Shown: one piece after another, positions 13,681-32,352 of the stretch
How the letters are laid out: each line of letters starts with the position of its first letter
Numbering within the stretch: the stretch's first letter is position 1
Assembly: GCA_944323345.1 (NCBI GenBank)
Contig: CALUSC010000010.1
Span: forward strand, 1 to 61,312
Length of the DNA stretch: 61,312 bases
Reading direction: 5' to 3'
Source: an uncultured Bacteroidales bacterium
GTDB taxonomy: Bacteria > Bacteroidota > Bacteroidia > Bacteroidales > UBA932
Program-made: the position numbers and the translations under genes
The notes under the pieces: generated by a model
What the model saw: the letters and a program-made list of their open reading frames with translations, nothing else
What the model was told of the DNA's origin: nothing
The model's database searches: none

Positions 13681-13710
13681 GTAAAAGGAAAGAGATTTCG
13701 AAGAAATCGT

Positions 13711-14033: not shown

Positions 14034-16982
14034 ATGAAAACAACATTGTTGATTCTTCTTGAACTGTTAATCTGTGCCATGCCGACAGTGGCCAATGTAC
14101 AGGTCGAGGACAATGAAGATGTCACAGTCAGCGGTGTCGTGACTTCTGCGGAAGACGGCATGCCGTTGATTGGTGTCGTTGTAATGTCATCAGCAGGGGG
14201 GGGCGTCAGCGCTTCCGATGACGGAAGCTACTCGCTTACGGTCCCTGCCGGCACAGTCCTCTCATTCCATGCCATCAGTTATGAAACTGTGGAATACATC
14301 GTTCCGTCGGGCTCATCATCTGTCAGATATGATGTATCCCTCGTATCCGATTCCCAGCTTCTCGAAGAGACGGTCGTCGTGGCCTACGGTGTGAGGAAAA
14401 AAGGCACCATCACGGGTTCCGTATCAAGCGTCAAGTCGGAAAAGATAGAAGCTACACCTACTGCGGCATTCGATCAGGCCCTCCAGGGACAGGTTCCGGG
14501 ACTGACAGTATTGTCGTCTACCGGTGAACCGAGTTCTTCAGCCACGATGCTCATACGTGGTTCGAACTCCATAAACTCCGGAACGTCTCCGCTTTACATT
14601 CTGGACGGAGCAGTCATCGCGGCTTCTGAATTCAATTCCATCAATCCGTCCGACATCGAAAGCATCTCAGTCCTGAAGGACGCCTCATCCACATCTATAT
14701 ACGGAGCGCGTGCATCGAACGGTGTTATCGTGATAACTACCAAACGCGGACGTATGGCTGACAAGCCGACCATAACATTCCGCACGCAGCTCGGTATTTC
14801 CGATATTGCCCACGGGCAATGGGATCTCATGGATACCAATGAGCGTATCGCTTACGAGAAGGAAATAGGTCTCGATGCCGGAAAAGACTATGCTGAACTG
14901 TCAAAAATAAACGTGGACTGGCAGGATGTGGTATATAATGATGCCGCACTTCTCCAGAACTACGAACTTTCCGTTTCAGGAGCTACAGAGCATACCAATT
15001 ACTACGTATCAGGTTCATACTATGATCAGGAAGGTATCGCCCTCGGATCTAACTTCAACCGTTACTCCCTTAGGGTCAATCTCGAACAGCGTGCGGCCAA
15101 GTGGCTTACAGTCGGAACCAACACCATGCTCAACTATCAGGGCATAGAGCAGGCCGACGAGGGAGCCCCTTCCGTAGTGACTCCTATTTCGGCTGCGCAG
15201 TTCATGCTTCCGTACTGGAATCCGTATAATTCAGACGGTTCCATCGCCAAGACCGGCGAGACTTGGAACGGAGACGGTGTGAACCCTATCGAGTGGCTTG
15301 ACAACAATCCTCTTTCATTCAAGAGATATAAGGTATTTTCATCCATATTCGCGGAAGCCAAGCCTATCAAAGGCCTTTCTATCAGGTCACAGTTCACTGT
15401 AGACTATACCCACACTACCGGTTACGGCAAGTCATATCCGGACTTCGCACCTAACCAGGAGCAGGGACAGGCCATGAGAAGCTCTACAGACGGCATGACG
15501 CTGTCCGTTACCAATACCGTAGGCTATCAGTTCGATATCAACCATGACCATTCATTCAATTTCATGGTCGGCCAGGAGGGTATCAACTATCACTATGAAG
15601 CGTTCAACGTATTGTCCGAAGGACAGAATAACCATTATCTGACCAATCTTTCTACCGGTTCGAGGGTTTCTTCATGGGGAGACACGACCGATGACGACTA
15701 TGGTTTCCTGTCGTTTTTCGCCAGGGCGGAATATAACTACGCGAACAAATATTATCTGGAACTTTCAGGACGTGCCGATGCTTCTTCGAGATTCGGTAGA
15801 GGCAACAGGTGGGCCGGATTCGGTTCTGTGGGTCTGATGTGGAACATGCTGAACGAAGATTTCATGGCATCGTCACGCAGCTGGCTGACTTTCGCACAGA
15901 TATCACTCAGCAGCGGAACAGCCGGAAACTCGGAGATTCCTAACTACGAGCATCTGGCTCTGATAGGAAATGCCGGAGATTATGTAGGATCTCCTGGTCT
16001 TGCTCCGATTTCACAGGGCAACGAAGACCTGAGCTGGGAGTCTACATGGACGACGAACCTCGGTTTCCATTTCGCTTTCTGGAACAGGCTGAACGTAGAC
16101 CTCGAGCTCTATAACAAGTATACGTACAATATGCTGATGCTTGTCCCTAAGTCCTATTCGGACAATGGATTCGGATCCAACTGGGACAATGTCGGAGCTA
16201 TGGTGAACCGCGGTGCGGAACTCAATCTCACCGGCACGGCGCTGCATATAGGCGACTTCATCTGGACACTCAACGCCAATGTATCCTACAACAAAAATAA
16301 AATCACCGAGCTTTACGGCGGGGTGGACGAGTATGAAGTATCCACCAGCAGCCTGAAACTCGTCGTGGGACACGATTCAGGAGAATTCTTTATCAACCGT
16401 TTTGCCGGAGTGAACCCGGCCAACGGAGACGCTCTCTGGTATACGAAAGACGGCGAGATAACGAACGAGCTCCGTGATGAAGACAGGGTCATGATAGGCA
16501 AGAGCTACAATGCACCGTGGGCCGGAGGTTTCGGTACTACCTTTGCCTGGAAGGGCCTCTCTCTTTCTGCGCAGTTCAGCTGGGTGGCCGACAGGTGGAT
16601 GATCAACAACGACAGATACTATCAGGAGTCCAACGGACGTTTCCAGACTTACAACCAGTCTGTAAAACTGCTCGACAGGTGGAAAGAGCCTGGCGACATT
16701 TCAGAGACTCCGCGTCATGGCGTATATATGGAATTCGATGACCGTCTTCTCGAAGATGCATCATTCCTCAGACTCAAGAACGTCATGCTGTCTTACCAGA
16801 TTCCGGCTCCTGTCATCAGGAAATCCGGCTTCATAGATGGTCTCAGAGTCTATTTCCAGGCTCAGAACCTTCTCACATTCACTAATTTCTCTGGTCTGGA
16901 CCCTGAAGGTGTCTCCAACATCTATATCGCCCAGTACCCGATGTCCCGTCAGTTCACTCTCGGTATTGACCTGACATTCTAA
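14034..16982 (+). CDS. SusC/RagA-family TonB-dependent outer-membrane transporter
   Basis: 982 residues. The order is a signal peptide (about 1-21), a CarboxypepD_reg-like domain (about 29-110: VSGVVTSAEDGMPLIGVVV), a plug domain (EETVVVAYGVRKKGTITGSV, LIRGSNSINSGTSPLYILDG, SIYGARASNGVIVITTKRG), and a 22-strand barrel ending in YPMSRQFTLGIDLTF with the C-terminal aromatic used for outer-membrane assembly. There is no N-terminal STN signalling domain, so it is not coupled to an anti-sigma/ECF pair. It works with the adjacent SusD lid to import an oligomer; the context suggests peptides. A run of eight G at 14196-14203 (codons 55-57) could cause slippage. Confidence 0.96.
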   Translation: MKTTLLILLELLICAMPTVANVQVEDNEDVTVSGVVTSAEDGMPLIGVVVMSSAGGGVSASDDGSYSLTVPAGTVLSFHAISYETVEYIVPSGSSSVRYDVSLVSDSQLLEETVVVAYGVRKKGTITGSVSSVKSEKIEATPTAAFDQALQGQVPGLTVLSSTGEPSSSATMLIRGSNSINSGTSPLYILDGAVIAASEFNSINPSDIESISVLKDASSTSIYGARASNGVIVITTKRGRMADKPTITFRTQLGISDIAHGQWDLMDTNERIAYEKEIGLDAGKDYAELSKINVDWQDVVYNDAALLQNYELSVSGATEHTNYYVSGSYYDQEGIALGSNFNRYSLRVNLEQRAAKWLTVGTNTMLNYQGIEQADEGAPSVVTPISAAQFMLPYWNPYNSDGSIAKTGETWNGDGVNPIEWLDNNPLSFKRYKVFSSIFAEAKPIKGLSIRSQFTVDYTHTTGYGKSYPDFAPNQEQGQAMRSSTDGMTLSVTNTVGYQFDINHDHSFNFMVGQEGINYHYEAFNVLSEGQNNHYLTNLSTGSRVSSWGDTTDDDYGFLSFFARAEYNYANKYYLELSGRADASSRFGRGNRWAGFGSVGLMWNMLNEDFMASSRSWLTFAQISLSSGTAGNSEIPNYEHLALIGNAGDYVGSPGLAPISQGNEDLSWESTWTTNLGFHFAFWNRLNVDLELYNKYTYNMLMLVPKSYSDNGFGSNWDNVGAMVNRGAELNLTGTALHIGDFIWTLNANVSYNKNKITELYGGVDEYEVSTSSLKLVVGHDSGEFFINRFAGVNPANGDALWYTKDGEITNELRDEDRVMIGKSYNAPWAGGFGTTFAWKGLSLSAQFSWVADRWMINNDRYYQESNGRFQTYNQSVKLLDRWKEPGDISETPRHGVYMEFDDRLLEDASFLRLKNVMLSYQIPAPVIRKSGFIDGLRVYFQAQNLLTFTNFSGLDPEGVSNIYIAQYPMSRQFTLGIDLTF
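14196..14203 (+). repeat. G8 homopolymer inside susC
   Basis: Eight consecutive G in codons 55-57 of the SusC reading frame (S-A-G-G-G-V). Gain or loss of one base would frameshift the receptor just after its signal peptide. Confidence 0.9.
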
Positions 16983-16993
16983 GAGGAGGAACT

Positions 16994-18568
16994 ATGATGA
17001 AAAAGATATTGAATATTATAAAAATTGCGGCAGTATCCGCATTCATTGCAGGAACTGCGACATCCTGCCTCGAAAAATATCCGGGGTCGTATATACCGGA
17101 AGATGATGCGATGAAGACATTCGCAGATGCCGAGCAGCATATCATCGGTATATATTCCAGCCTGAAGAGCGGCAGCCTTTACAGCGGAAACCTGACTCTT
17201 CTGCCTGATATCCAGTCGGATCTGGTGATGGCTTCGCTGACGAACTCGAATCCTTACGACGGCATCTGGGACTGGGATATCCGTCCGACAGACTCGAGTA
17301 TCGAAGCCGTGTACGGCTCTCTTTATGCCGTAATCGGAAACTGTAACTTCTATCTCGAAAAAGTGGAGGAAGTCCGTGCTTCACTCACGGATGAAGACCA
17401 GATAGATCTTCTGGATACTTATACCGGAGAAGCATACGCCATACGTGCGCTCTGCTATTCGGAACTGATAAAATGCTTCTGCGAGGCATATCCGGGAGAG
17501 AACGGACGCGATGACAAGACTGCCAAGACCATGAAGGGAGTAGTACTCCGTACGTTGTACACCGAGCCGGAACCTGTCCGCAGGGCGAGTCTTTATGATT
17601 CTTACCAGCAGGTTCTCAAAGATCTCGATAAGGCGGAAGAATATCTCGAAGACGGCGATGACGACCCGACCGTAAACGAAAGCGATGTATATGACAACTA
17701 TTATATTTCGCTCGGAGCAGTCTATGCCATCCGTGCCCGCGTCGCCCTTTACATGCGCGACTGGGACAATGCCGTCAAGTACTCTACTTACGTGATAGAC
17801 AATGATGCTTTCGCCCTGAGCGGTACGGGAGTGAACTCTACGCTCGGCACCTATGCTTTTGACGGGCTGTGGTATTATGACTCCGGTACTGAAATCATCT
17901 GGAGAATCGGATTCACCCCTACTTCATACGGAGGAGCCCTCGGTACCGTATTCCTGAATTATACCAGGGACCTTACCTATTTCTATCCGGACTATGTGCC
18001 GGCAGAATGGGTCATTAACCTTTATAACCCTAACAGCGACATCCGCTACCAGGCGTATTTCGCCGATGAAAGCATTACCGGAATACCTAACGGATATTCT
18101 TACGAAATACCGGTTCCTTTGGTAGTCAAATACTACGGCAACCGCAATTTCACGAGCACCTACCAGCTCTATCATGTCAGCATGCCGAAGCCTCTCAGGC
18201 TCGCCGAGCAATATCTGATCAGGGCGGAAGCCTACTACTGGAAAGGCGATACGGGTCTTGCAAGCCAGGATCTTACGACTCTCAGCCAGAGCAGGGGCGC
18301 CGGTTCTGTTTCCGTAGGCAGCGGAGAAACCGGTCTCCAGACCATATCTGACGAAAGAGTAAAGGAACTTTATATGGAAGGTTTCCGTCTGAACGACCTC
18401 AAGAGATGGGGCTGGGGATTCGAAAGGACTCCTAACAGCTATTCGCAGGAGGAAGGAAACGACATGAAGGTTTCAGCAGACGATCCGCTTTTCGTATGGC
18501 CTATCCCTCAGCATGAAATTGAAGCCCCTGGCTCTGAAATCGAGGGGAACGAGAGCAACAACAGGTAA
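16994..18568 (+). CDS. SusD/RagB-family surface lipoprotein
   Basis: 524 residues. The lipoprotein signal ends TATSC, with Cys as residue 25 or so. The N-terminal SusD-like helices (FADAEQHIIGIYSSLKSGSL) and the TPR-like core with AIRALCYSELIKCFCEAYP are typical. So is the C-terminal RagB segment with RLAEQYLIRAEAYYWKGD and ERVKELYMEGFRLNDLKRWG. SusD proteins cap the SusC barrel and bind the substrate at the cell surface. It starts 11 bases after susC. Two adjacent ATG codons (16994, 16997) are possible starts. Confidence 0.96.
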   Translation: MMKKILNIIKIAAVSAFIAGTATSCLEKYPGSYIPEDDAMKTFADAEQHIIGIYSSLKSGSLYSGNLTLLPDIQSDLVMASLTNSNPYDGIWDWDIRPTDSSIEAVYGSLYAVIGNCNFYLEKVEEVRASLTDEDQIDLLDTYTGEAYAIRALCYSELIKCFCEAYPGENGRDDKTAKTMKGVVLRTLYTEPEPVRRASLYDSYQQVLKDLDKAEEYLEDGDDDPTVNESDVYDNYYISLGAVYAIRARVALYMRDWDNAVKYSTYVIDNDAFALSGTGVNSTLGTYAFDGLWYYDSGTEIIWRIGFTPTSYGGALGTVFLNYTRDLTYFYPDYVPAEWVINLYNPNSDIRYQAYFADESITGIPNGYSYEIPVPLVVKYYGNRNFTSTYQLYHVSMPKPLRLAEQYLIRAEAYYWKGDTGLASQDLTTLSQSRGAGSVSVGSGETGLQTISDERVKELYMEGFRLNDLKRWGWGFERTPNSYSQEEGNDMKVSADDPLFVWPIPQHEIEAPGSEIEGNESNNR

Positions 18569-18580
18569 AAATCAGAGGCT

Positions 18581-19501
18581 ATGAGAAGAACCATTATACT
18601 TTCAGCAATCCTTCTCGGAGCGGCATTGACCGCTTGCCAGAAGGGCAATATCAAGACATTCGACACCGAGTTCATCATGTTCCAGGATACTTTGTCGGTT
18701 CATGGTGTCCAGCAGGGCAAGGAGGATGAGGAATATTTTTTCACAGTGCCGGTGACATCCACCGTGGCATGCGACTATGACAGGACCATCGCCGTGGAAA
18801 TCATTGACGAAGGCGGAAATGCTGTCGAAGGCCGTGACTATAAACTGGCTTCCAACACCATCACCATTCCTGCCGGGGAGTACAGGACCGATGTGCTCGT
18901 ATATCCTGAGTATGACATGTTCAATGATGAGGATACCCTTTCATTCAACCTCAAGCTCGTGATGCCGGAACAGTTGAAATGGGATGTTTACGGAGACCAG
19001 ACGAAAGTGTCCATGTACAAGGTCTGCCCGTTCGACATCAACGCTTTCACCGGATGGTGCGTAGTCACTTCCATTTTCCTCTATAACTATCCTGGAGTGG
19101 ATGGTACTGGCGATTATCAGAGACTTATCAAGACAACCCTTGATGATGCCGAGGAAAATACCGTCATTCTTCATGACTGGCTGTTCGACGGCTATGATGT
19201 GAAAATCAAACTCGATCCGTCGGATCCGGAAGAACCGCTGGTTACTATGGAAGAAGACCAGCTTATCAGCGATGAGGAATCTGTCTTCGGCCAGATCAAC
19301 GGAGACAACAGGATTCTCGGTATGGGCAGTCCTGCCTACGTTTCATATTTCAATACATGCCAGTCTTTCGTATCCCTTTGGATGAGAGCGTATGTCTATG
19401 ACATCAAGACCCTTGTGGGTTATGTAGGAGACTTCTACAATGTCATGGAATGGGTTTCCGACGAGGAAGCCGAACGTCTCCAGAGAGAAAACGGGTGGTA
19501 G
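18581..19501 (+). CDS. DUF4843 domain lipoprotein
   Basis: 306 residues. The lipobox is ALTAC (Cys at about residue 19). The body matches the DUF4843 family that commonly follows SusD: a Calx-beta/Ig-like N-terminal half (VPVTSTVACDYDRTIAVEII, GRDYKLASNTITIPAGEY) and a second half with YPGVDGTGDYQRL. These are presumed surface ligand-binding proteins. The start is 12 bases after the susD stop. The ligand is unknown. Confidence 0.8.
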   Translation: MRRTIILSAILLGAALTACQKGNIKTFDTEFIMFQDTLSVHGVQQGKEDEEYFFTVPVTSTVACDYDRTIAVEIIDEGGNAVEGRDYKLASNTITIPAGEYRTDVLVYPEYDMFNDEDTLSFNLKLVMPEQLKWDVYGDQTKVSMYKVCPFDINAFTGWCVVTSIFLYNYPGVDGTGDYQRLIKTTLDDAEENTVILHDWLFDGYDVKIKLDPSDPEEPLVTMEEDQLISDEESVFGQINGDNRILGMGSPAYVSYFNTCQSFVSLWMRAYVYDIKTLVGYVGDFYNVMEWVSDEEAERLQRENGW

Positions 19502-19522
19502 GATGTCGAATTTTAAGGAATC

Positions 19523-22048
19523 ATGGTTATGAAAACTGTATTTACCAGATTATTTTCCATATTGATGTTTTCCGTAGCGGTCTTTACTGCATGCGAGGAA
19601 ATGGAAGAAAATCCGCAGAAGGCAGAGCCTGCTTTTCCTGCGGAGACATTCTCGGAATTCCTTTATCCGGAGACTGAGGCAAACGCTTCTGCCGAGGATG
19701 AAATCGAATTCGAATATGAAATAGTGTTCACACCGAACTATAACTGGACACTCAGTATTCCTACTCAGGAAGCAGCATCGTATTTCAGACTCCGCAGCGG
19801 CGCGCAGGATGTATTTACGGTCAGGGGCAATGCTTCTGAAGAACCGGTGAGCATTACAATATATTGCCGTGCAGGCGAACGTGATTTCGAAGACCATTCG
19901 GTCGATGTCACATTGACCATGAACGGTCAGGACAAGGTCATCGGTACAGTCACACTCCCTTCCCTGAAAAGGAAATTCGACGTATATCAGGCCAAGACTG
20001 ATGAAAACGGTTTCGTGGCAGCCACGGACGGAGGCGTGTTCAGCTATCAGTACGAGACAGAGGCATTGACTTCTGATAAGCCGGTAAGCCTTATCTGGAA
20101 TGACTTGGAAGCCGTCTATGAAGGCTATGTTATAGTGGATGCCAACTCCGACTGGACTCTGAACCTCGAAAAATCCGACAGCGAAATCACTGTCAGTGAA
20201 ATAAGCGGCCATGTTTCAGGCACGCGGAAAGAAGTGAGGATTACCAGCAGTCTGGTGGCTCAGGAAGACAATACGTTCCAGTTTGTGCTGGAACTCACAG
20301 ACGAGAATGTTTCCGAGGAAGAAAAGACTCATACATACAGTGTGCTTGTGCCGGCTTTCAGTACAGCATTCAATGTTTATCCGGTGGAAGTCGACGGTAA
20401 CGGGGATTATGTAGTCAGCGACGACGAGGCATTCACCATGTCATACGCTTCGGAGCCTGTAGCTGAAGGATCCGACATAAATCTCGAATATGTGACAGAG
20501 AGCGGGCAGTATATTTCTTATATCCTAGTGGATGCGAACTTCGAATACACAGATATCGCAGCTACCATCGATGATGAAGGAAACAAGCCAGACTATCTTG
20601 ACGGTATAGTGCCTGAGTGGCTCGATGTCAAGGAAGTAGGTGCATCCGGCACCAAGAGAGAGTTCCGTATCACCGTATCTGCGGAGAACTATGCCCTCGA
20701 AGGGGATTCCGCTCCGTTGGTATTCTACCTCAGCGAAAATATTCAGTACAGCTACAATATCATACTTCCTGCATCGCAGAATCTGTTCGAAGTAGCGCTT
20801 TCTCATTCAGGTACATCGGAGTTCAATTCCGAAGGCCAGGCGTATAATTCACAGATGGGGCAGTATGTGGAGGACGGTGCCGCCATAGGTGTCACCAGTG
20901 CAGACGGGCTTGTGATATACGAGCTTTCCATGAATGAAACCGGCTTTTATGTCATGGACAAGAACGAGAATTTCGATAATCCTGAAATGGCCCTCACAGA
21001 CTGGATCCATACCGAATGGTCATGGAATGCGGCTGATCTCGGTCTTGTGCAGACCAATAATATAACAGTCACAGTAGACCCTAATACCGGCGAGGCCCGC
21101 CGTGGCATGGTCATCGCCCTGCCGGCAGAAATCAATGCCGAGGCCGTAGCGGCTGCCGCCGGTCAGGGCGGGGATATGAGTCTGGTTCTCTCCCTGGACG
21201 GCAAGACCGTAGCGCCTGAGTACGAGAATTACGTGGTGACGATTATCGAGCAGGCTGCCGACCCTTCTGCGGCAGGTATTGTTATCGATACCGAATACGA
21301 AGCGAACTGGGAGGCTCTTTCCGGCACTATGGAAGCATTGTCCTCTTCGGATCAGTTCTATGGAAAGGCTGATTACGGTTATCAGATTACTTACAGGTGG
21401 AATGAGTGGGCATCTTTCGAAGGTACCACATCATTCGGAGGTGAACTTCTTTTCAACATAAATCTGACATACACCGATTATGATGTTTATTCGGTAGATG
21501 CATCCGGAAATCCGGATATGGTAACTGATAAGGACAATTACTGGATCCGGCTTGTGAAGAGCGAAGGCAAGGCGCATTATATATTGATCGCACCGGAGGA
21601 CATGAATAATATTGTCGGCGGCCAGGCTTATTTCGCCTTGAAGAATGCCGACGGCGAATATGTCGCGATCATCAAGTTCTCTTATGAGATCGATTCGGCC
21701 CTTTCGCTCTCCCTTGTACAGGGGCAGGGCTGTACCCTGACAGAAGTTCCGGAAGCCGACAGGCCGGAGAACGCAGGCTCATCTGCCTGCTGGCTGCTTG
21801 AATATACGGGAAACGCCGAAGGTGCATTGGCCGTGATTTCAGGCCTTCCTTCTGACGTCAGTTATGTTCAGCCTTCTGCCGGATGGCTGTCTGCAGAGTC
21901 CATGGGCGGAGGATCATACAGTGTCGATATCCAGCCCTCACTTGCGGAAGAAGGCGATACGGAAGGATATATCCAGTTCGGAGCAGGTACAGACTCATCC
22001 ATGAGATATGTACTTTACCTGATAGTCAGGATGAATATTACAGAATAG
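19523..22048 (+). CDS. Large Ig-like-repeat surface lipoprotein, unknown
   Basis: 841 residues. ATG at 19523 or 19529 could start it; the lipobox is VFTAC, followed by an acidic stretch (EEMEENP) that fits a Bacteroidetes lipoprotein export signal. Three related modules are visible, each opening with an F-x-V-Y/A strand: FDVYQAKTDENG (about residue 151), FNVYPVEVDGNG (about 282) and FEVALSHSGTSE (about 420). Repeats 1 and 2 share the phrase ILVDAN/VIVDAN and a GTKREFRIT/GTRKEVRIT strand. This gives a rod of tandem Ig-like domains. It probably extends a binding site from the cell surface. I do not recognise the family. Confidence 0.8.
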   Translation: MVMKTVFTRLFSILMFSVAVFTACEEMEENPQKAEPAFPAETFSEFLYPETEANASAEDEIEFEYEIVFTPNYNWTLSIPTQEAASYFRLRSGAQDVFTVRGNASEEPVSITIYCRAGERDFEDHSVDVTLTMNGQDKVIGTVTLPSLKRKFDVYQAKTDENGFVAATDGGVFSYQYETEALTSDKPVSLIWNDLEAVYEGYVIVDANSDWTLNLEKSDSEITVSEISGHVSGTRKEVRITSSLVAQEDNTFQFVLELTDENVSEEEKTHTYSVLVPAFSTAFNVYPVEVDGNGDYVVSDDEAFTMSYASEPVAEGSDINLEYVTESGQYISYILVDANFEYTDIAATIDDEGNKPDYLDGIVPEWLDVKEVGASGTKREFRITVSAENYALEGDSAPLVFYLSENIQYSYNIILPASQNLFEVALSHSGTSEFNSEGQAYNSQMGQYVEDGAAIGVTSADGLVIYELSMNETGFYVMDKNENFDNPEMALTDWIHTEWSWNAADLGLVQTNNITVTVDPNTGEARRGMVIALPAEINAEAVAAAAGQGGDMSLVLSLDGKTVAPEYENYVVTIIEQAADPSAAGIVIDTEYEANWEALSGTMEALSSSDQFYGKADYGYQITYRWNEWASFEGTTSFGGELLFNINLTYTDYDVYSVDASGNPDMVTDKDNYWIRLVKSEGKAHYILIAPEDMNNIVGGQAYFALKNADGEYVAIIKFSYEIDSALSLSLVQGQGCTLTEVPEADRPENAGSSACWLLEYTGNAEGALAVISGLPSDVSYVQPSAGWLSAESMGGGSYSVDIQPSLAEEGDTEGYIQFGAGTDSSMRYVLYLIVRMNITE

Positions 22049-22055
22049 GAAAAGA

Positions 22056-24776
22056 ATGAAGTTATATATGAAACATTTCAATTTACCAGTTTTGACAGGC
22101 GTATTGGCCGCGATAGCGGTCCTGATATCCGGCTGCGTCCGCGAGGAACTGCCAGACAACAGGGATACCGCATACGGCTACGCACAGTTCAAGCTGTACA
22201 AGGCAGCATCGTATGAAAATGCCACGAAGGCCATCGTCGATGAACTGGAACTGCTGTCCGATGCCAGCAAGATCAGGGTCGAACTTCTGTCCGGCGACCA
22301 GTCCATCGTTCAGACGCTGACACTTTCGTCTTCCGATCTCGAATCTGCAGAATTCGGACTGAGAAGCAGCAAGCTCAGGCTGCTGGCCGGCGACTATCAG
22401 GTCGTCTCATATACTCTTTATGACGCTTTCGACAAGGAGCTTTATATCGGGGCGTCTTCAGGCACGCTTACCATTGTTCCCGGAGGTCTTACCATGTTCG
22501 ATCTTACTGCTAACGTAGCGGAACGGGGAAGTGTCAGATTCAGGCTCATCAAAGAGAACATAGATGAAATCAATGCAGGTGCCACCAAGGCCGGTACGCG
22601 TCAGTATACGTTTGACGAGATTACTACCGTATGGCTCACCCTGAGGAATCTCAATAATCCTACGGAGCCGATAGAGCTGGACAGCCTTACCGTGGAATTC
22701 ATCGAGGATTTCTCCGACGAACAGCAGTATGAGGGAGAAGACGGTGTGAAAGGATGGCAGACATCGTACAGCGAGTGCGACAGCCTCATCTATCTGCCTG
22801 CCGGCACGTATAAGGTAATCGAGTACGAAGTCCATGATGTTGACGACAATCTTCTTGAAATCAGGACTCTTTCCGCAGACGAGATAAACGCCGCACCGTC
22901 CTTTGTCATAGAAGACAATAAGACTACAGAAGCTGATGTTCCTGTAACTCTTTATGAATCAGACGAGTATATAAAGGAATATTATTCTCTGAGAGAACTC
23001 TGGTATGCCCTAGACGGTCCTAATTGGTCGTATGAAGGCGAAACCTGGCCGATAGGCACCAACTGGGACTTCGACAAGGACGTGGACCTCTGGTGCGACC
23101 AGCCGGGTGTGCAGGTGCATCCTAACGGACGTATCGCCAGCATCGATTTCAGCGGTTTCGGCATCAGCGGCCGCTGCCCTGAGGAAATTGGGGACTTCAC
23201 TCAGCTCGTACAACTTTATTTCGGAAACCATAACGAGACTAACCAGTACAGGCCGGGCAGCAGCGCCGGTACCGAGACTCTTGCTTATCCGATTTACGGA
23301 TCTGCCGATGAGAAAGCCGAGTGGCGCCAGAAGATGCAGGAACAGTATTCCGCCCAGCTCCACCCGGGCATGCAGATGTCTCCAGTCTGCGCACTTGCCC
23401 TGAGGGAGCACGGAATATCCTCCGCAGCCACTGCCATGTATGACGGAATGACTTCCGACGAGATTTCACGTATGGCTGCAGGCGGTATGGTGCCGTCGGA
23501 TTTCGAACTGCACCGCTATGACATGAACCACGGGAAACTCACCAACGGGCTTACCGGTATCGATGACGCCATAGGGAATCTGACCAGACTTGAGTCTCTC
23601 AGCATAGCCAATTCCCCTATTACGGCAGAAGGCTTCCCGAGTGCGGCTGCCATGGGCAGGCTTGTTTCCGTCACTGACTTCGAAATCTATAACTGTCCTA
23701 ATCTTGAAAGTCTTCCGGAAGGCGCAGCCGCCATGCCGGCATTGATCACCGTGAACATATCCAACAATGAATTCAAGGCAGACGCTGCAAATGCGGCATT
23801 GCTGGCATTGGCTGAAGGCAACTCACGGAATACTATCCAGATATTGTATTTCCTGCAGAACGGATTGACCAAGCTGCCGCAGGAAGTCGGAAATATGGCG
23901 AATGTCGGCATGCTCGACGTTTCCCAGAACAACATTACCGGCGCCCTGCCTGTACTCGGAGATGACTTCACTCCGGAAGAACTGAATTTCGACTACAACA
24001 AGATCACTTCAGTCCCTGACGGATTCTGCTCTCTCGATGCCCTGGACAGTTTCTCCATAAATTACAACGAACTGGAGGAATTCCCTAACATATTTTCTTC
24101 GGATATAGACATCATCATGTCTACGATAAGTGCTGCGCACAACAACATAAAGAAACTTCCGGACGAGGGCGTTTTCAATGGTCTGCGTGCAGTCACTCTG
24201 ACACTTTCAGGAAACCCGATAGAGAAATTCCCAGGAGAACTCGCGGCTACAGATTCATACGTGGAGCAGCTTGTCATGCAGCAGTGCGGCATGAAAGAAT
24301 TCCCGAAGGGATGTCTGGACGGCAAATATACGAGCAACATCACTACTCTCGACCTGCAGTTCAACAACCTGACAGATCTTCCGGAAGATTTCAACGCCAA
24401 AGCGATGCCGTATCTTTATGGTATCGACCTGTCGAGCAATGCTTTCGTAGATTTCCCTCTTGAACCGCTGAACATATTGAGACTGACGGCTTTTGCCATC
24501 AGGGGACAGCGCAACGCCGCAGGCGAAAGGTCGATGAGGGATTGGCCGGAAGGCCTCTACACCCATACCGGTCTGAGAGGGTTCTATATCGGCTCGAACG
24601 ACCTTAGGGTGATCAACGACGATATATCGAGCATGATTTTCTATCTGGATATAAGCGACAATCCGAATATAATATTCGATGCCTCGGATATTTGCGCATA
24701 CTGGGAAGCAGGAGCGTATATCCTCTACTATGACAAGACGCAGAACATTGTGAACTGTGATTCTATGCTGGAATAG
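22056..24776 (+). CDS. Leucine-rich-repeat surface lipoprotein (DUF4458-like N-terminus)
   Basis: 906 residues. The lipobox LISGC is followed by REELPDN. The N-terminal part (about 30-300) is a pair of beta-sandwich modules, including the phrases GDYQVVSYTLYDAFDKELY and AGTYKVIEYEVHDVDDN. It resembles the DUF4458-type domains found before LRRs in Bacteroidetes, an assignment from memory. From about residue 310 the LRR cap YSLRELWYALDGPNW begins, then about 18 irregular LRRs (LESLSIANSPIT, NVGMLDVSQNNITG, TLDLQFNNLTDLPE). LRR arrays form protein-binding surfaces. It starts 7 bases after the previous gene. Confidence 0.8.
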   Translation: MKLYMKHFNLPVLTGVLAAIAVLISGCVREELPDNRDTAYGYAQFKLYKAASYENATKAIVDELELLSDASKIRVELLSGDQSIVQTLTLSSSDLESAEFGLRSSKLRLLAGDYQVVSYTLYDAFDKELYIGASSGTLTIVPGGLTMFDLTANVAERGSVRFRLIKENIDEINAGATKAGTRQYTFDEITTVWLTLRNLNNPTEPIELDSLTVEFIEDFSDEQQYEGEDGVKGWQTSYSECDSLIYLPAGTYKVIEYEVHDVDDNLLEIRTLSADEINAAPSFVIEDNKTTEADVPVTLYESDEYIKEYYSLRELWYALDGPNWSYEGETWPIGTNWDFDKDVDLWCDQPGVQVHPNGRIASIDFSGFGISGRCPEEIGDFTQLVQLYFGNHNETNQYRPGSSAGTETLAYPIYGSADEKAEWRQKMQEQYSAQLHPGMQMSPVCALALREHGISSAATAMYDGMTSDEISRMAAGGMVPSDFELHRYDMNHGKLTNGLTGIDDAIGNLTRLESLSIANSPITAEGFPSAAAMGRLVSVTDFEIYNCPNLESLPEGAAAMPALITVNISNNEFKADAANAALLALAEGNSRNTIQILYFLQNGLTKLPQEVGNMANVGMLDVSQNNITGALPVLGDDFTPEELNFDYNKITSVPDGFCSLDALDSFSINYNELEEFPNIFSSDIDIIMSTISAAHNNIKKLPDEGVFNGLRAVTLTLSGNPIEKFPGELAATDSYVEQLVMQQCGMKEFPKGCLDGKYTSNITTLDLQFNNLTDLPEDFNAKAMPYLYGIDLSSNAFVDFPLEPLNILRLTAFAIRGQRNAAGERSMRDWPEGLYTHTGLRGFYIGSNDLRVINDDISSMIFYLDISDNPNIIFDASDICAYWEAGAYILYYDKTQNIVNCDSMLE

Positions 24777-24807
24777 TTGAACATAGGAAACGACAAAATA
24801 CTGAATT

Positions 24808-26619: not shown

Positions 26620-26631
26620 GAGACAATAGAG

Positions 26632-28731
26632 ATGAAAATGAAATATATAAAGATACTTTTTGCCGCTGCCGCAGTGCTGGCGCTCGCTTCCTGTGCAAAG
26701 GAAGTCCTGTCTGACAGTCCGGTTACCGTTCCTCAGGAAGAAAAGACCAGACTGGACGGGGAAGTCGTGCTCAAGTTCGACGATTCGCTGTCCGATCTTC
26801 TGGACAAGATAAATCTGGACGGGACGCCTTCCACACGTTCAGGGGTGACGACCGTAGATGAGATTCTCGATATTATCGGAGGATACAAGCTGGAAAGGGT
26901 CTTTCCTGTGAATCCGGCCACTGAAGATATGTCCAGGAAATCCGGTCTCCATCTTTGGTATGTAGTGTATTTCGATGAAAGCCAGGACGTGGACGAAGTC
27001 GTGAAAAAGCTTTCAGCTCTGGGCGAAGTCCAGACGGCTTCTCCAGTAAGGACTATCAAGAAGGCCTATGACGGAAACGTAATCCCTTATCATCCGTCAG
27101 CCAAAGCCATGACGAAGGCTGAAGGCGATGCTCTGTTCAATGACCCTGAACTGTCAAAGCAGTGGGGTCTCGTGAACGAGGGTGCATCGGAACATAAAGT
27201 GAATCCTGTCTTTGCCGGTTCTCATCCGGACTATCCGGATTATCCTTACGACAAGGAGGCTTCGGCAAAGTTCGTTGCGGGCGATGATATAAACTGCCGT
27301 GAGGCGTGGACCATGAGCAAGGGCGACCCTTCCATCATCGTGGCTGTGCTCGATGAGGGTATTTTCCTCGAACATCCTGACCTGGCGGCAAACATCTGGA
27401 CCAATGAAGACGAGATTTACGGCTCTCTCGAAGACAACGACGGGAACGGCTATCCCGGCGACAAGCACGGATACGACTTCATGAATAACAGAGGCGTCAT
27501 TACATGGGATTCTTATGGAGATACCGGTCACGGATCACATGTATCCGGTGTCATAGCGGCCGTGAACAACAACGGCGTCGGCATTTCATCCATTGCCGGA
27601 GGCGATGTCGCATTGAATATGCCTGGAGTGAAGCTTATGTCATGTCAGGTATTCTCCGGAAATCAGGCTTCCAACACTGTCAGTCTTGCACGTGCCATTA
27701 AATATGCAGCAGACAACGGTGCAGTCGTTCTTCAGTGCAGCTTCGGCTATACTTCCGGCGCGGCGAACCCTTATGTTTACGGCTCGTCAGGCGGATACAA
27801 GACTGAAGAGGAATGGGAGACATACTGCCCTCTCGAAAAATCGGCTCTGGACTATTTCATTCATAACGCCGGCTCTGACAACGGCCCTATCAAGGGCGGT
27901 ATTCCTGTCTTTGCCTCCGGCAATGAATATGCTCCTCAGGCCGGTTTCCCGGGAGCTGCTGAAGGCTGTGTTTCAGTAGCTGCGGTAGCTGCAGACTTCA
28001 CTCCGTCGACGTTTACCAACTATGGAGAAGGCATAAGCGTGGCCGCTCCGGGCGGTGACCAGGACTATTATTTCGACTTTCTGGAAGACAACGGAGACAG
28101 GGGAGCGGCCGGCTGCATCCTGTCCACACTTCCGTATCATGTGAGCGACAATACGGGCTACGGATACATGGAAGGGACTTCCATGGCCTGCCCTCATGTG
28201 TCAGGTGTCGTGGCTCTCGGACTTTCGTATGCCGCACAGATGCACAGGCATTTCACTGCGGAAGAATTCAGGGAACTCCTGTTCGATACCAGCAAGAATA
28301 TCGACGAGAGCATGTACGGAAACAAATTCTACTACCAGTGGCAGAGTGATGCTTCCGGACTTATTCATCCGGACCGCCTCAATCTGGGTTCATACCGTGG
28401 CAAGATGGGTGCGGGTGTCATAGATGCCGGAGCTCTTCTTTCTGCCATAGCCGGTGGAGCCGGAGTACCGATGGAGTTTCCTAACATTTACGTGAAAGAA
28501 GGTTCTTCCGTAACTGTGAATCCGTCTGCATATCTCGACGGAGAATCATTTACGATAGCAATAGACGATACATCCGTGGCAAGCGTGGCTGCGGGAACTG
28601 CTGCCGGAACATATACCATCTCAGGTCTCAAGAGCGGTTCTACTACGGCTACGATTACTCCTGCCGGCGGTGCTGCGCAGACTTTTGTCATCACTGTTCG
28701 TACGAGCGGGAACGGCTCAGGCTGGCTTTAA
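26632..28731 (+). CDS. Surface-anchored subtilisin-like serine protease (S8 family)
   Basis: 699 residues. The lipobox LALASC anchors it to the outer membrane. An N-terminal propeptide-like segment (about 40-150) includes YVVYFDESQDVDEVVKKL, an I9-inhibitor-like strand-helix. The catalytic domain has all residues: Asp241 (AVLDEGI), His300 (GHGSHVSGV), oxyanion Asn431 (FASGNE) and Ser517 (EGTSMACPHVSG). The C-terminal 90 residues form a Big_2-like Ig domain (FTIAIDDTSVASVAAGTA). As the only enzyme in the operon, it likely cleaves surface-captured proteins for import by SusCD. The gene's stop overlaps the next start (TAATG), so the two are translationally coupled. Confidence 0.93.
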   Translation: MKMKYIKILFAAAAVLALASCAKEVLSDSPVTVPQEEKTRLDGEVVLKFDDSLSDLLDKINLDGTPSTRSGVTTVDEILDIIGGYKLERVFPVNPATEDMSRKSGLHLWYVVYFDESQDVDEVVKKLSALGEVQTASPVRTIKKAYDGNVIPYHPSAKAMTKAEGDALFNDPELSKQWGLVNEGASEHKVNPVFAGSHPDYPDYPYDKEASAKFVAGDDINCREAWTMSKGDPSIIVAVLDEGIFLEHPDLAANIWTNEDEIYGSLEDNDGNGYPGDKHGYDFMNNRGVITWDSYGDTGHGSHVSGVIAAVNNNGVGISSIAGGDVALNMPGVKLMSCQVFSGNQASNTVSLARAIKYAADNGAVVLQCSFGYTSGAANPYVYGSSGGYKTEEEWETYCPLEKSALDYFIHNAGSDNGPIKGGIPVFASGNEYAPQAGFPGAAEGCVSVAAVAADFTPSTFTNYGEGISVAAPGGDQDYYFDFLEDNGDRGAAGCILSTLPYHVSDNTGYGYMEGTSMACPHVSGVVALGLSYAAQMHRHFTAEEFRELLFDTSKNIDESMYGNKFYYQWQSDASGLIHPDRLNLGSYRGKMGAGVIDAGALLSAIAGGAGVPMEFPNIYVKEGSSVTVNPSAYLDGESFTIAIDDTSVASVAAGTAAGTYTISGLKSGSTTATITPAGGAAQTFVITVRTSGNGSGWL

Positions 28732-29507
28732 TGTTCTGCCGTTCCGCCATATATGCCGTGCTGTCGCTGGTTTCAGCGGTGTCCCTTTCCGCCCAGTCGG
28801 AAAGGGAACGTCTGATAGACAGCCTGTCCCGTCCGGAAATTTCCGCGACAGGCGCCATGCTGAAATTCGATGTCACGGTCATGGATGCGGGGACGTTGGA
28901 CGAGGAAAGTTCTCCTGAAGAATACGAGTTCCGCTGGACGAATGTCGGGGAGACCCCTGTAACGGTGACCAATGTTACCACGACATGCGGATGTGCGGTC
29001 CCTTCTTTCGAAAAAGGACCGGTACAGCCGGGGGAAAAGAGTTCTTTGAAAATAACGTATCACCCGAAAGGGCATCCCGGTAAATTCGACAGATGTATAT
29101 TCGTCTATACCGATATTTCCGGGAGCTTGCCTGCAGCCGTGCTGCGGCTTGCCGGAAACGTGATTCCTTCATCAAGGCCGGTATGGGCCTTCCCTTATCA
29201 GATGGGAAATCTGTATCTGAAGCAGAAAGAAGTGAAATTTTCAGGAGAAGCCAGGGCTGTGGAACGGATATTCTGCCTGAATGCAGGTGAAAAACCTTTG
29301 AAAATAGGGGCCGAGACAGCTCTCCTGCCTCCATATCTGAAGTTCAGATGCGAACCGGAGACTATTCAGCCGGGAGAATATGCGGATCTGGTGATTTCAT
29401 TCGATCCTGATGCATCTGCCATGAGACTGCTGAAAGCGGTCCCGGTGATATTGACGGGAATCGACCTTCCTCCGTCCCGGCGGACTGTAACTGTGGTATT
29501 TGAATGA
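28731..29507 (+). CDS. Exported DUF1573 protein
   Basis: 258 residues. A signal peptide of about 22 residues ends SLSAQ and has no lipobox cysteine, so the protein is periplasmic or released. Two ASH/DUF1573-type beta domains are seen: FRWTNVGETPVTVTNVTTTCGC with VQPGEKSSLKITYHPKGHPG (about 62-130), and a second one from about residue 165 (FCLNAGEKPLKIG). DUF1573 proteins are abundant in Bacteroidetes but have no settled function. The start ATG shares its A with the protease stop codon. Confidence 0.85.
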   Translation: MFCRSAIYAVLSLVSAVSLSAQSERERLIDSLSRPEISATGAMLKFDVTVMDAGTLDEESSPEEYEFRWTNVGETPVTVTNVTTTCGCAVPSFEKGPVQPGEKSSLKITYHPKGHPGKFDRCIFVYTDISGSLPAAVLRLAGNVIPSSRPVWAFPYQMGNLYLKQKEVKFSGEARAVERIFCLNAGEKPLKIGAETALLPPYLKFRCEPETIQPGEYADLVISFDPDASAMRLLKAVPVILTGIDLPPSRRTVTVVFE

Positions 29508-29532
29508 CGAGAAAATTGAAAATAATGATATA

Positions 29533-29979
29533 ATGAAAAATTTATTGAAAATAGCATTTGTCGCTGCCGTATTGGCGGCAGCCTCCTCATGTGAAAAGGC
29601 AGGGGAGGAGGGAGAGGCTTATCTTCCTGTGACACCGTATAATATCGAAGGAATATGGGAGCTGTCGGAGTGGAACGGGGCGGCTCTTGCCGATGGGACT
29701 TTCGCCTATATCGAAATTGTCCGTCAGGACAGGAAATTCACCACTTATGATAATCTGGACAGTTTCCTGACATCAGTCAAGACAGGCGAATACGATGTCG
29801 ACGAGGTGGATGGAAGTATCGGCGGCATTTACGACTATTCCAGCATGACTCCGTGGTCCCACAGCTATGTCATTTCAGAACTGACGCATGACAGGATGGT
29901 GTGGACTGCCGAAGACGATGAATCGGAAGTGCGCGTATATGTCCGCGTAGATGCTCTCCCCGACGGTATCGCACAGTAG
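29533..29979 (+). CDS. Small lipoprotein, lipocalin-like
   Basis: 148 residues from the ATG at 29533, chosen because it places the lipoprotein signal MKNLLKIAFVAAVLA...SSC correctly; an upstream ATG at 29500 would add 11 charged residues before the signal and overlap the DUF1573 gene. After the Cys comes the acidic run EKAGEEGE, then YNIEGIWELSEWNG, the opening of lipocalin-like 8-strand barrel proteins of Bacteroidetes. The body ends with HDRMVWTAEDDESEVRVYVRV. The ligand is unknown. Confidence 0.8.
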   Translation: MKNLLKIAFVAAVLAAASSCEKAGEEGEAYLPVTPYNIEGIWELSEWNGAALADGTFAYIEIVRQDRKFTTYDNLDSFLTSVKTGEYDVDEVDGSIGGIYDYSSMTPWSHSYVISELTHDRMVWTAEDDESEVRVYVRVDALPDGIAQ

Positions 29980-30033
29980 CCGTCTTCTCCTGACCAGAGA
30001 ATAATAACACCTATTTTAATAACAAATACTAAA

Positions 30034-32352
30034 ATGAACAGAACAAATTCATTCCGCAGCCTGACTGCAGCAGCCATGGCTACGTTGGCGGCCGGAGCGC
30101 TATCGTTCACGTCCTGCGAGACATTCGACGACAGCGACATCCTGTCTTCTCTTGATGACCTCAATTCGAGGGTCGAGGCTTTGGAAACTGCACTGAACTC
30201 TCTTCAGGGAGATGTCGATGCCATTTCCGGACTTCTTGCCGAAGGCAAAGTGATCAAAAGTGTCACTTCGAACGCTGACGGCACTCAGTATACTATAACA
30301 TATGTAGGAGAAGATGTCAAATCGGATGTGATTACCGTGGGTACGGGAGACCCTGTCATCACTATCCTCAATGAGGGTGGCGTATACTATTGGGCGAAGA
30401 TAAATGCTGACGGAAAGGCTGAACATATCCTCGGCCCAGACAACAAGATTTCTGTACTTCCTGAAAAAGTGGAGATTCCTGAGCAGGTAGCTCCGACCCT
30501 TGACATTACCGAGGACGGGAAACTTCAGGTGTCTATCGACAATGGCTCTAAATGGACAGACACAGGTGTGCAGATTTCCGACATTTATGTGCCTACTTTC
30601 TCTTCAGTCGTTCCAGGCAACGGTTCTGTGGTTTTCACTCTCCAGGACGGAACTTCTTTCGAGGTGCCGATGACTGTCGAGCTTGTCTGCGAGTTTATCA
30701 GCGGAAAGACATATTTCGACTATGGCGAGACTCTCAAGCTGGCTGTCAATGCAAGCGGATATGAGAAATATGAACTGGTAGCGCCTAACGGATGGGAGGC
30801 TGCATTCGACGGGTCTGTCGTCACTGTTACTGCACCATATGAGGTTTCTGCCGGTGTCGCTGCATCCGGAGACATCGTTCTGAGGGTTTATGCTGACGGT
30901 GACGTATATATCGACAAGGTTTCCGTAGCTGTCGGTGAAGAGGCCGGTATCAGCATCTCTGTCGAAGAAACAGAGGATGCTGTGAATGTGAAAGTGACAG
31001 TGGGCGGAACGAGTGTTTACTGTGGCGTGATGAAGGCATCCGAGTTTACTGCCGAGGCTGCCGCCGCTTTGGCTGCATCTGAAATGGATCTTCCTGATTA
31101 TGACGATTACGGAAATCCTGTGGAAGGAGATTATAAATTCAATATTCCTATGGATTCCATGGATTGGAGTACAGGTAAAGGTATTCTTACCAAACCGTTA
31201 TCTGACTTTGTCGAGGCTCCTTCGGCTGGTGAGCAGTATGTAATATGGGCTGTAGATACATGGCAGGAGGATGAAGCCATCACGGCAGAAGATGTCTATA
31301 CTTATGTCTATGCTTATGCGTCTGCTGTAGAAACGAAGGTAGAGAATGTAACTTTCTGCGACGCTGACATCACTATCACTCCAGCCGGCCAGACTGAGTA
31401 TTATTATGGAATAGTAGAGAAAGACTATTACTATCCTGATGACATACTTTATAATTTGGGACCGGATTCATGGCAGCCGTATGAGTCTCATAGCGGCGAA
31501 TTGAAGATGAAATTATCGGAAATTGCAGCAAATCCTGACACTTATGTAAGTATTGACGCTGGCAGGACTTATCTGTTCTGGACTGTGGTGAAGAACTCGG
31601 ATATCAACGATACCGAATATACTGTAAAGGATATCAAGACTGAGGAATTCACTCTGAACGAACTGACATACGACGGTACTGCGCAGGTAACCTTCGGAGA
31701 AGTAGAAGCTACGCATAATTCTGTATCTGTCACTGTGACGGCACCTGAAAATGCGCATGCCGTATATGGCATGTATGCCGGAGCTGATATGGTGGCAGGT
31801 ATGACTGACGAACAGATTAGAAATGATCTCATGTACAGCGAGCTTGATCCTGACGATCTCACGATAAAAGGCACATATCTCAATGCAGAAACAAAGGGAT
31901 GGATCTTTGCCGTAGTGGTGGACAATGATGGCAAGGTGGGCCCTCTGACAAAAGTAGAGGCAAATACTACGGCTGTCGTAAGAAATGAAACTATCACCAT
32001 CGAGGCAGGTCAGCATTCATTCAGCAAGGATGGCCTGACACTGACTGTTCCGCTTACTATTACAGGCGAAGGGGCTGAAACAGTCGTATATTATAATAAG
32101 ACAGCTGATTCAGATTGGTATTTCTATGGAGAGTTTGAAGCTATTGACGCCGCTGTAGCAAGCGACCCGTCGCATTCTTCATTCTCAAGGGTACCGGTTT
32201 CGGAGCTGGTAGACGGAGCGCTTGAAATACCGTTCTATTCATATACTGCAGCTGGAGAATATAATTTCTACGCTTATGTTATGGATGCAGACGGCCATGT
32301 AACATCTGATTACGCTCACATTACCTACACGTTTACTCCACCGACTAGGTAA
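30034..32352 (+). CDS. DUF4988-type lipoprotein with coiled coil and Ig-like domains
   Basis: 772 residues. The signal ends LSFTSC, followed by ETFDDSD. A short coiled coil (LDDLNSRVEALETALNSLQG, about 40-60) leads into the DUF4988-like segment (VDAISGLLAEGKVIKSV, ITILNEGGVYYWAKINADGK). The rest is a series of Ig/fibronectin-like beta domains, with aromatic-rich stretches such as YYYGIVEKDYYYPDD. Related DUF4988 proteins end many SusCD operons and are thought to be surface binding proteins. A strong terminator follows. The 54-base gap before it is the largest in the operon, but I see no internal promoter. Confidence 0.8.
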   Translation: MNRTNSFRSLTAAAMATLAAGALSFTSCETFDDSDILSSLDDLNSRVEALETALNSLQGDVDAISGLLAEGKVIKSVTSNADGTQYTITYVGEDVKSDVITVGTGDPVITILNEGGVYYWAKINADGKAEHILGPDNKISVLPEKVEIPEQVAPTLDITEDGKLQVSIDNGSKWTDTGVQISDIYVPTFSSVVPGNGSVVFTLQDGTSFEVPMTVELVCEFISGKTYFDYGETLKLAVNASGYEKYELVAPNGWEAAFDGSVVTVTAPYEVSAGVAASGDIVLRVYADGDVYIDKVSVAVGEEAGISISVEETEDAVNVKVTVGGTSVYCGVMKASEFTAEAAAALAASEMDLPDYDDYGNPVEGDYKFNIPMDSMDWSTGKGILTKPLSDFVEAPSAGEQYVIWAVDTWQEDEAITAEDVYTYVYAYASAVETKVENVTFCDADITITPAGQTEYYYGIVEKDYYYPDDILYNLGPDSWQPYESHSGELKMKLSEIAANPDTYVSIDAGRTYLFWTVVKNSDINDTEYTVKDIKTEEFTLNELTYDGTAQVTFGEVEATHNSVSVTVTAPENAHAVYGMYAGADMVAGMTDEQIRNDLMYSELDPDDLTIKGTYLNAETKGWIFAVVVDNDGKVGPLTKVEANTTAVVRNETITIEAGQHSFSKDGLTLTVPLTITGEGAETVVYYNKTADSDWYFYGEFEAIDAAVASDPSHSSFSRVPVSELVDGALEIPFYSYTAAGEYNFYAYVMDADGHVTSDYAHITYTFTPPTR

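What the first reader, a model, noticed from the sequence alone, without database searches (positions are those of the whole stretch)
14034..32352. Protease- and LRR-based SusC/SusD operon without carbohydrate enzymes
Ten co-directional genes behind one visible promoter and before one strong terminator encode SusC, SusD and seven surface lipoproteins plus a DUF1573 protein. The only enzyme is an S8 protease with an intact Asp241/His300/Asn431/Ser517 set. Two adjacent LRR lipoproteins, one with BACON, suit binding of a protein rather than a glycan. No glycan-degrading enzyme, HTCS, SusR or sigma/anti-sigma pair is present. RagAB-type SusCD pairs are known to import peptides, so I infer a surface system that captures, cuts and imports a proteinaceous or glycoprotein substrate.
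Basis: partly seen in the sequence, partly recalled or inferred. Interest (0 to 1): 0.72.

Follow-up and report, generated by a model that had tools for sequence, protein, structure and literature searches.

The report
Protein-scavenging surface operon with tagged protease
This is a conserved set of gut-bacterial surface genes that pairs a RagAB-like importer with its own protease and a possible protease inhibitor, probably to cut and eat proteins, and the protease ends in an almost unchanging three-letter tail of unknown purpose.

Summary
The ten-gene operon is real: Bacteroides-type promoter 13977-14010, terminator-like hairpin 32379-32406, intact S8 residues. Gene 3 is DUF4984, not DUF4843. 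The conserved unit is nine genes: SusC-SusD-DUF4984-LP4-LRR-BACON/LRR-S8-DUF1573-lipocalin. All nine stand in a row in 46 of 79 fetched loci (Alistipes, Cryptobacteroides, Tidjanibacter and unnamed kin); the other 33 are cut off, duplicated, or miss or split single genes; one (L102) has part of SusC inverted. The tenth gene (DUF4988) is optional. None of the neighbouring genes scanned is a carbohydrate enzyme. By published annotation B. thetaiotaomicron BT0207-BT0213 looks like the same operon, so it is testable in a laboratory strain. Among solved structures the window SusC is nearest to the peptide importer RagA. A RagAB-type protein-scavenging system is most likely (0.6); no substrate is shown. 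Two additions: (1) gene 9 models as an eight-stranded lipocalin-like lipoprotein, encoded just after S8 in two cassette types and absent from three cassettes without S8; a candidate S8 inhibitor (fold similarity to potempin E, among others). (2) 76 of 77 complete S8 genes end in [GD]W[LM] behind a variable linker; most bearers form one group on a tree, apart from relatives with type IX-like ends.

The parts
13977..14010 (+). Bacteroides-type promoter TTTG-N22-TATCTTTG
   Evidence: pattern search; sequence
14034..16982 (+). SusC/RagA TonB-dependent transporter, nearest solved relative RagA
   Evidence: TIGR04056 747.6 bits; RagA 6SLI 539 bits
16994..18568 (+). SusD/RagB lid lipoprotein
   Evidence: PF07980/PF14322; 3KEZ 73.7 bits, RagB 62 bits
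18581..19501 (+). DUF4984 lipoprotein with a DUF4843-like N-terminal part (below cut-off)
   Evidence: PF16372 160.9 bits
19523..22048 (+). LP4: large lipoprotein, weak BACON-like stretch (below cut-off), fastest-evolving of the seven cassette proteins measured
   Evidence: mean identity 28.3% in 58 proteins
22056..24776 (+). LRR5: DUF4458 + LRR_10 + leucine-rich repeats, lipoprotein
   Evidence: 4ECN 512 bits
24808..26619 (+). BLRR6: BACON + leucine-rich repeats (LRR below cut-off), lipoprotein
26632..28731 (+). S8 subtilase lipoprotein: Peptidase_S8_N prodomain, catalytic domain, C-terminal strand-rich domain
28720..28728 (+). codons of the C-terminal Gly-Trp-Leu tail of S8 (residues 697-699)
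28731..29507 (+). DUF1573 protein (Ig-like), signal peptide by eye, no lipobox
   Evidence: PF07610 98.5 bits
29536..29979 (+). LP9: lipocalin-like lipoprotein, candidate inhibitor or partner of S8
   Evidence: PF13648 21.7 bits, cut-off 22.4; AlphaFold2 model, pLDDT 90; Foldseek
30034..32352 (+). DUF4988 lipoprotein, accessory
   Evidence: PF16378; in 7 of 79 loci
32379..32406 (+). terminator-like hairpin with T run

Best explanation
A protein-scavenging system of the outer membrane. Shown by sequence: a RagA-type SusC, a SusD lid, several lipoproteins, one S8 subtilase with intact active-site residues and one lipocalin-like lipoprotein, in a conserved order. Inferred: the LRR, BACON-LRR and LP4 lipoproteins bind protein at the cell surface; the lipid-anchored subtilase, activated by removal of its prodomain, cuts it; SusCD takes the peptides in as RagAB does; LP9 holds the subtilase in check in the manner of potempins. 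The GWL tail on its short linker probably binds a partner, for example to keep the mature protease on the complex once its lipid-bearing prodomain is cut off.
For: All nine genes in a row and on one strand in 46 of 79 loci; the rest agree apart from cut ends, missing, split or duplicated genes and the partly inverted SusC of L102. No CAZyme among the ten genes or the 21 neighbours scanned. SusC nearest to RagA: 539 bits against 356, 300 and 97 for other SusC structures; a SusC of the sister cassette shows no such preference, 327/322/318. RagAB takes up gingipain-cut peptides (passage, PMC11817032). S8 residues intact. LP9 is recognised in 71 of the 74 loci that reach far enough and a lipocalin-like gene directly follows S8 in 21 of 24 members of the sister clade, against 0 of 25 other S8 genes whose next gene is visible; S8, DUF1573 and LP9 are missing together in L147-L149.
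Against: No substrate, expression or complex data. The best solved match of SusD is a 'putative sugar binding protein' (3KEZ). The BACON region of BLRR6 matches that of a GH16 enzyme (8VA4, E 0.00085). The core exists without protease. A BT_0212 mutant still cleaved EspB (PMC6282197), so no activity of this S8 is known. Two tailed S8 genes of the sister kind (L174, L175 second copy) lack the usual GTS[MA] motif. LP9 resembles potempin E in fold only; uncharacterised lipocalin-like proteins score higher.
Confidence: 0.6

Rival explanations
1. Glycoprotein (mucin-like) processing: S8 cuts the protein core and SusCD imports glycopeptides or glycans released by enzymes encoded elsewhere.
For: BACON region matching that of a GH16 enzyme; SusD best match 3KEZ is named sugar-binding; 22 SusC over the cut-off in this genome.
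Against: No CAZyme with the cassette among the neighbours scanned; RagA-like SusC.
Confidence: 0.17
2. Cofactor piracy: LRR lipoproteins capture carrier proteins, S8 opens them, and SusCD takes up a cofactor or metal complex.
For: Surface lipoproteins with TonB transporters serve vitamin B12 and iron uptake in Bacteroides (PMC10404256 and PMC13142918, listings and starts of abstracts).
Against: In B. thetaiotaomicron the locus is listed as lower under iron depletion, not higher, and not significantly (P 0.084-0.57 and 0.152-0.241, PMC10434189, flattened table as I read it).
Confidence: 0.08
3. Surface protease for interaction with host or competitors (KLIKK-like), with import secondary.
For: Protease plus small lipoprotein pair as in Tannerella forsythia; LP4 evolves fast.
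Against: Conserved nine-gene linkage to SusCD; the core without S8 still has SusCD and LRR proteins.
Confidence: 0.1
4. GWL tail as an autoinhibitory or product-like peptide in the S8 active site instead of a docking tag (concerns the tail only; not exclusive of the above).
For: A C-terminal Leu could sit as P1 in a subtilase (general knowledge).
Against: The tail is disordered in the model (694-699, pLDDT under 50); a weak argument, since such tails are often modelled poorly.
Confidence: 0.15

Closest known systems
RagAB of Porphyromonas gingivalis
   Same: SusC/SusD pair, nearest solved SusC relative; imports peptides made by gingipains (PMC11817032, passage)
   Different: There the proteases are the gingipains; here a protease, LRR lipoproteins and a lipocalin-like lipoprotein are in the operon
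BT0207-BT0213 of Bacteroides thetaiotaomicron (annotated only)
   Same: SusD BT0207, DUF4984 BT0208, BACON BT0211, S8 BT0212, DUF1573 BT0213 in the same order (PMC10434189, passages); 4ECN is a homologue of LRR5 (that it is BT_0210, and that BT0206 is the SusC, are recalled)
   Different: Sequence not compared here; S8 tail and lipocalin gene of that strain not seen
B. [quoted passage not shown]
   Same: stable complex of SusCD with two lipoproteins from an uncharacterised locus (PMC7618045, passage; that this is BT2261-2264 is recalled)
   Different: BT_2264 only 97 bits from our SusC
KLIKK proteases and potempins of Tannerella forsythia
   Same: Protease gene next to a small lipoprotein gene reported as inhibitor; LP9 resembles potempin E in fold; S8 resembles mirolase, solved with potempin C (8EHE)
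   Different: KLIKK proteases share a C-terminal domain ending KLIKK (abstract) and the lipoprotein gene comes first; here a lipobox, a GWL tail and the gene downstream; no significant sequence match of LP9 to any solved protein (best 2MHD, E 0.097)

Membership tests
SusC/SusD (RagAB) transport systems | SusC/RagA family barrel with plug | tested here: met
   TIGR04056 747.6 bits, cut-off 368; PF07715, PF00593
SusC/SusD (RagAB) transport systems | SusD/RagB lid encoded next to it | tested here: met
   PF07980 and PF14322 over cut-off
Peptide-importing RagAB branch | closest to RagA among solved SusC | tested here: met
   539 bits against 356 for the next; SusD less clear (3KEZ before RagB)
Peptide-importing RagAB branch | peptides in the binding cavity | not testable with these tools
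   needs purified complex
Polysaccharide utilisation locus | carbohydrate-active enzyme in the locus | tested here: not met
   Pfam and NCBIfam of ten genes; 21 neighbours of relatives
Polysaccharide utilisation locus | own regulator (HTCS, SusR, sigma/anti-sigma) | tested here: not met
   none among the ten genes; the gene before tRNA-Ser is FloA; genes after 33 kb judged by eye, not scanned
Type IX secretion substrates (KLIKK) | C-terminal Por_Secre_tail domain | tested here: not met
   TIGR04183 absent in the window S8, present in the relatives L155 and L050
Potempin-type inhibitors | small lipoprotein gene adjoining a protease gene | tested here: met
   (in the nine-gene cassette with DUF1573 between; downstream, not upstream)
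Potempin-type inhibitors | compact lipocalin-like barrel as in potempin E | tested here: inconclusive
   8EHC TMq 0.49, TMt 0.73, E 0.0021, rank 11; other lipocalin-like proteins score higher
Potempin-type inhibitors | inhibits the neighbouring protease | not testable with these tools
   needs enzyme assay
S8 subtilases | Asp/His/Ser triad and oxyanion Asn | tested here: met

The most novel reading that the evidence does not exclude
A 'peptide utilisome': SusCD, LRR receptors, a lipid-anchored subtilase and its lipocalin-like inhibitor form one surface machine, and the invariant C-terminal Gly-Trp-Leu is a docking tag that holds the mature protease on that machine after its lipid-bearing prodomain is cut off, taking the place of the type IX sorting domain and PorV-family partner seen in related SusCD-linked subtilases.
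Probability: 0.25. Interest if true: 0.72.

Novelty: new variant of a known kind. Interest (0 to 1): 0.5.

Why it matters
SusCD systems are mostly studied as glycan importers. An order-conserved SusCD locus with its own protease, present by annotation in B. thetaiotaomicron, makes protein foraging by gut Bacteroidales directly testable. The fixed C-terminal tripeptide and the protease-lipocalin pair are concrete features whose functions can be assayed.

Tried and rejected
DUF4843 for gene 3: rejected, DUF4984 scores far higher. Gene 10 as part of the unit: rejected. GWL as ligand of the neighbouring lipocalin only: weakened, because L041, L042, L174, L179 and the second copy in L175 keep the tail without a recognised lipocalin next to it. 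GWL packed in the protease: not supported by the model, tail disordered. GWL as a genome-wide tag: one degenerate DNA pattern found 9 places in the window's genome against 3 for the reversed control; by my ORF searches are ends of open frames: the second S8, its lipocalin-like neighbour (ending EGWL), and an unrelated frame of at least 504 residues that looks by eye like an aminotransferase. The pattern misses the window's own S8 (its Ser codon), so this is no census. Sister-clade lipocalins often end in an aromatic or aliphatic residue plus Leu (RFL and alike) but not always, so no claim is made. Iron response of the B. thetaiotaomicron locus: listed as lower but not significant. Literature: full-text searches (SusC or SusD with S8 or subtilase terms) returned no paper, and 56 only PMC10434189; 33, 49 and 52 (locus tags, family names) found PMC10434189 and PMC6282197 besides unrelated papers; 19 and 81 were broader and only their listings were read, apart from the papers cited. 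The tail itself was not searched for in the literature.

Full report
1. The observation. The window holds ten co-directional genes at 14034-32352. A Bacteroides-type promoter lies at 13977-14010 and a terminator-like hairpin at 32379-32406. Pfam gives SusC, SusD, DUF4984 (not DUF4843), LP4 with a weak BACON-like stretch, DUF4458+LRR_10+LRR, BACON with weak LRR, Peptidase_S8_N+Peptidase_S8, DUF1573, a lipocalin-like protein just under the Pfam cut-off (LP9), and DUF4988. None is a glycan enzyme; the NCBIfam match of gene 10 to a hyaluronate lyase family covers positions 10-294 of 840 and is far below the cut-off. The window lies in a 2.1-Mb, 88% complete assembly; by its nearest named relatives it is probably a Cryptobacteroides (inference).

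2. Conservation. All nine cassette genes stand in a row and on one strand in 46 of 79. The other 33 are cut by a contig or locus end, have single genes not recognised or split by my ORF calls, or carry a tandem copy (L086); one, L102, has a truncated SusD and a SusC fragment on the opposite strand. Gene counts: SusC 59, SusD 62, DUF4984 61, LP4 61, LRR5 76, BLRR6 78, S8 79, DUF1573 69, LP9 71, DUF4988 7. Of the 8 loci without LP9, 5 end in or just after S8; L075, L082 and L104 do not. Named sources include Alistipes muris DSM 112343 (L088), a MAG called Alistipes senegalensis (L091), Tidjanibacter and Candidatus Cryptobacteroides. In the genus, 10 of 41 genomes, the window's included, have an S8 match above 500 bits (many are incomplete). 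In an even sample of 295 genomes of the order, DUF4984 matches in 6; LRR_10 is over its cut-off in the same 6, with one more match under it. The cassette is sparse in the order at large.

3. Neighbours. Genes next to the cassette differ from locus to locus; of 84 loci with a visible next gene 49 have it on the opposite strand and 35 on the same strand (some of these frames are probably spurious). Pfam scans covered 12 of those 35, two of them DUF4988-like, and 9 upstream genes in the loci that reach that far: none matched a carbohydrate-active enzyme family; 4 of the 21 matched no family at the E-value limits used (L102 and L146 downstream; L034 and L035 upstream). Matches included a TonB receptor, an S41 peptidase, a metallophosphatase and housekeeping genes. 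Genes on the opposite strand and further away were not scanned. B. thetaiotaomicron BT0207-08 (SusD, DUF4984) and BT0211-13 (BACON, S8, DUF1573) are listed in PMC10434189 (passages only); the change under iron depletion is not significant as I read the flattened table. A BT_0212 mutant kept EspB cleavage (PMC6282197, passages).

4. Variants. In three loci of two other families (L147, L148, L149) the same SusC-SusD-DUF4984-LP4-LRR-BACON/LRR core lacks S8, DUF1573 and LP9 and ends instead in a third LRR lipoprotein with a sub-threshold DUF4458 match; one of these genomes has an S8 and LP9-like pair in another SusCD locus (L171). So the protease module seems to come and go as a unit. A sister kind (type B) has SusC, SusD, a large lipoprotein and an S8 about 35-40% identical. 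On the tree it is a clade of 24; in 21 of these a lipocalin-like gene directly follows S8 (not in L041, L042, L179). The window's genome carries one such locus on contig C2 (L040). Among the 25 other S8 genes listed with a visible next gene, none has it (leaving out L171, L185 and L187, which do, and the tailed L174 and L175 second copy, which do not). A third kind (type C) has larger S8 proteins; the two tested carry a T9SS sorting domain and a PorV-family neighbour (L155, L050).

5. The GWL tail. In the 79 loci 76 of 77 complete S8 genes end in [GD]W[LM]; the exception is the second copy in L086, 594 residues, probably damaged. The scan that found the loci used two internal peptides, not the tail. 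In 39 aligned proteins Trp698 is invariant and the last residue is Leu (37) or Met (2). Among unique complete nine-gene-cassette proteins 84 of 85 have the tail; 58 different linkers of 3-6 residues stand before it in the 83 that fit the pattern. Over these and 25 tailed relatives all six Leu codons and all three stop codons occur, so it is the protein that is conserved. In the type B clade 23 of 24 end in GW[LF] and the last, L190, in AWL; outside it L185 (incomplete at its start) ends GGGL. Of 134 unique S8 proteins with a GTS[MA] motif, 109 end [GD]W[LMF] and 25 do not; 3 of 141 hits were dropped by that filter, two with the tail (L174, L175) and one without (L154). On a tree of 84 of these (35 cassette proteins, the window's and 34 at random, plus all 49 others), built without the last 30 residues, the tail needs 3 changes against 22.0 for shuffled labels; 58 of its 59 bearers lie in one group of 60, support 93; the one outside (L187) has a very long branch (quick method). 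No other cassette protein measured has such a fixed end, though LRR5 often ends ML[EDN] and DUF4984 EGM. In the AlphaFold2 model the tail is disordered. Hence a real, selected C-terminal motif of unknown function; docking is my inference.

6. The lipocalin. LP9 models well (pLDDT 90.1) as an eight-stranded barrel. Foldseek finds lipocalin-like Bacteroides proteins first (4QRL, 5BYP, 2MHD) and T. forsythia potempin E at ranks 11 and 14; a profile search finds no significant sequence relative in the PDB (best 2MHD, E 0.097), but the lipoproteins before KLIKK proteases share no significant sequence similarity among themselves either (PMC4404884, passage). Potempins are small lipoproteins encoded next to a protease and reported to inhibit it (PMC7296668, passages; the authors cite unpublished data there). 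Mirolase, solved with potempin C, is among the structural matches of our S8 (8EHE); potempin E is named together with forsilysin in that paper. Inhibition of S8 by LP9 is a lead, not a result.

7. Transport. Window SusC: RagA 539 bits, 8AA4 356, 5T3R 300, BT_2264 97 (that 8AA4 and 5T3R belong to the dextran and levan loci is recalled). Type B SusC from L043: 327, 322, 318 and 148 for 8AA4, RagA, 5T3R and BT_2264. SusD: 3KEZ 73.7, RagB about 62. RagAB takes up gingipain-cut peptides (PMC11817032, passage). LP4 is the fastest-evolving of the seven proteins measured (mean identity to the window 28.3% against 42.8-56.3% for the other six; SusC and SusD not measured), as might be expected of a binding surface, which is inference.

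8. Verdict. The cassette is a RagAB-like SusCD system with its own protease and no CAZyme: a new variant of a known kind, with no functional study found in the searches named under Tried and rejected. Protein scavenging is the best reading at 0.6. The unusual points are the fixed C-terminal tripeptide and the S8-lipocalin pair.

Noticed in passing
window 13559-13769: A dispersed non-coding element of about 210 bp with imperfect terminal inverted repeats and a 51-bp hairpin at one end: 11 full copies in this genome, ten of them 100% identical over about 210 bases to the window copy; in 40 other genomes of the genus only two short partial matches. It looks like a recently active MITE. One copy lies upstream of each of the two S8-locus SusC genes, in the same orientation (window and L040), but others lie beside unrelated genes.
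   Followed up: partly
L102 1-2337: SusC fragment (87% identical to the window's) on the opposite strand beside a truncated SusD at the locus start: an inversion at SusC/SusD or a misassembly.
   Followed up: no
L172 (G349 contig C8): Tandem array of six large S8-like genes (864-957 aa) in one genome of another family.
   Followed up: no
L155, L050 and similar loci (L049, L152, L154-L165): SusCD-linked S8 proteases of another kind; in the two tested (L155, L050) S8 has a type IX sorting domain and a PorV-family gene follows, while PorU was over its cut-off in 0 of 41 genomes of the window's genus (the model may be too strict).
   Followed up: partly
L086: Tandem duplication of the LRR-BACON/LRR-S8 part; the second S8 ends early without the GWL tail.
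   Followed up: no
S8 tree: Cassette proteases of Alistipes and Cryptobacteroides are interleaved, which may mean transfer between families; not tested.
   Followed up: no
L040 5178-7247 and 4696-5187: In the window genome's second S8 locus both the protease and its lipocalin-like neighbour end in GWL.
   Followed up: partly
L175 10302-12311 and L174 4743-6638: S8-like genes that keep the GGWL tail but lack the usual GTS[MA] active-site motif; possibly inactive relatives.
   Followed up: no
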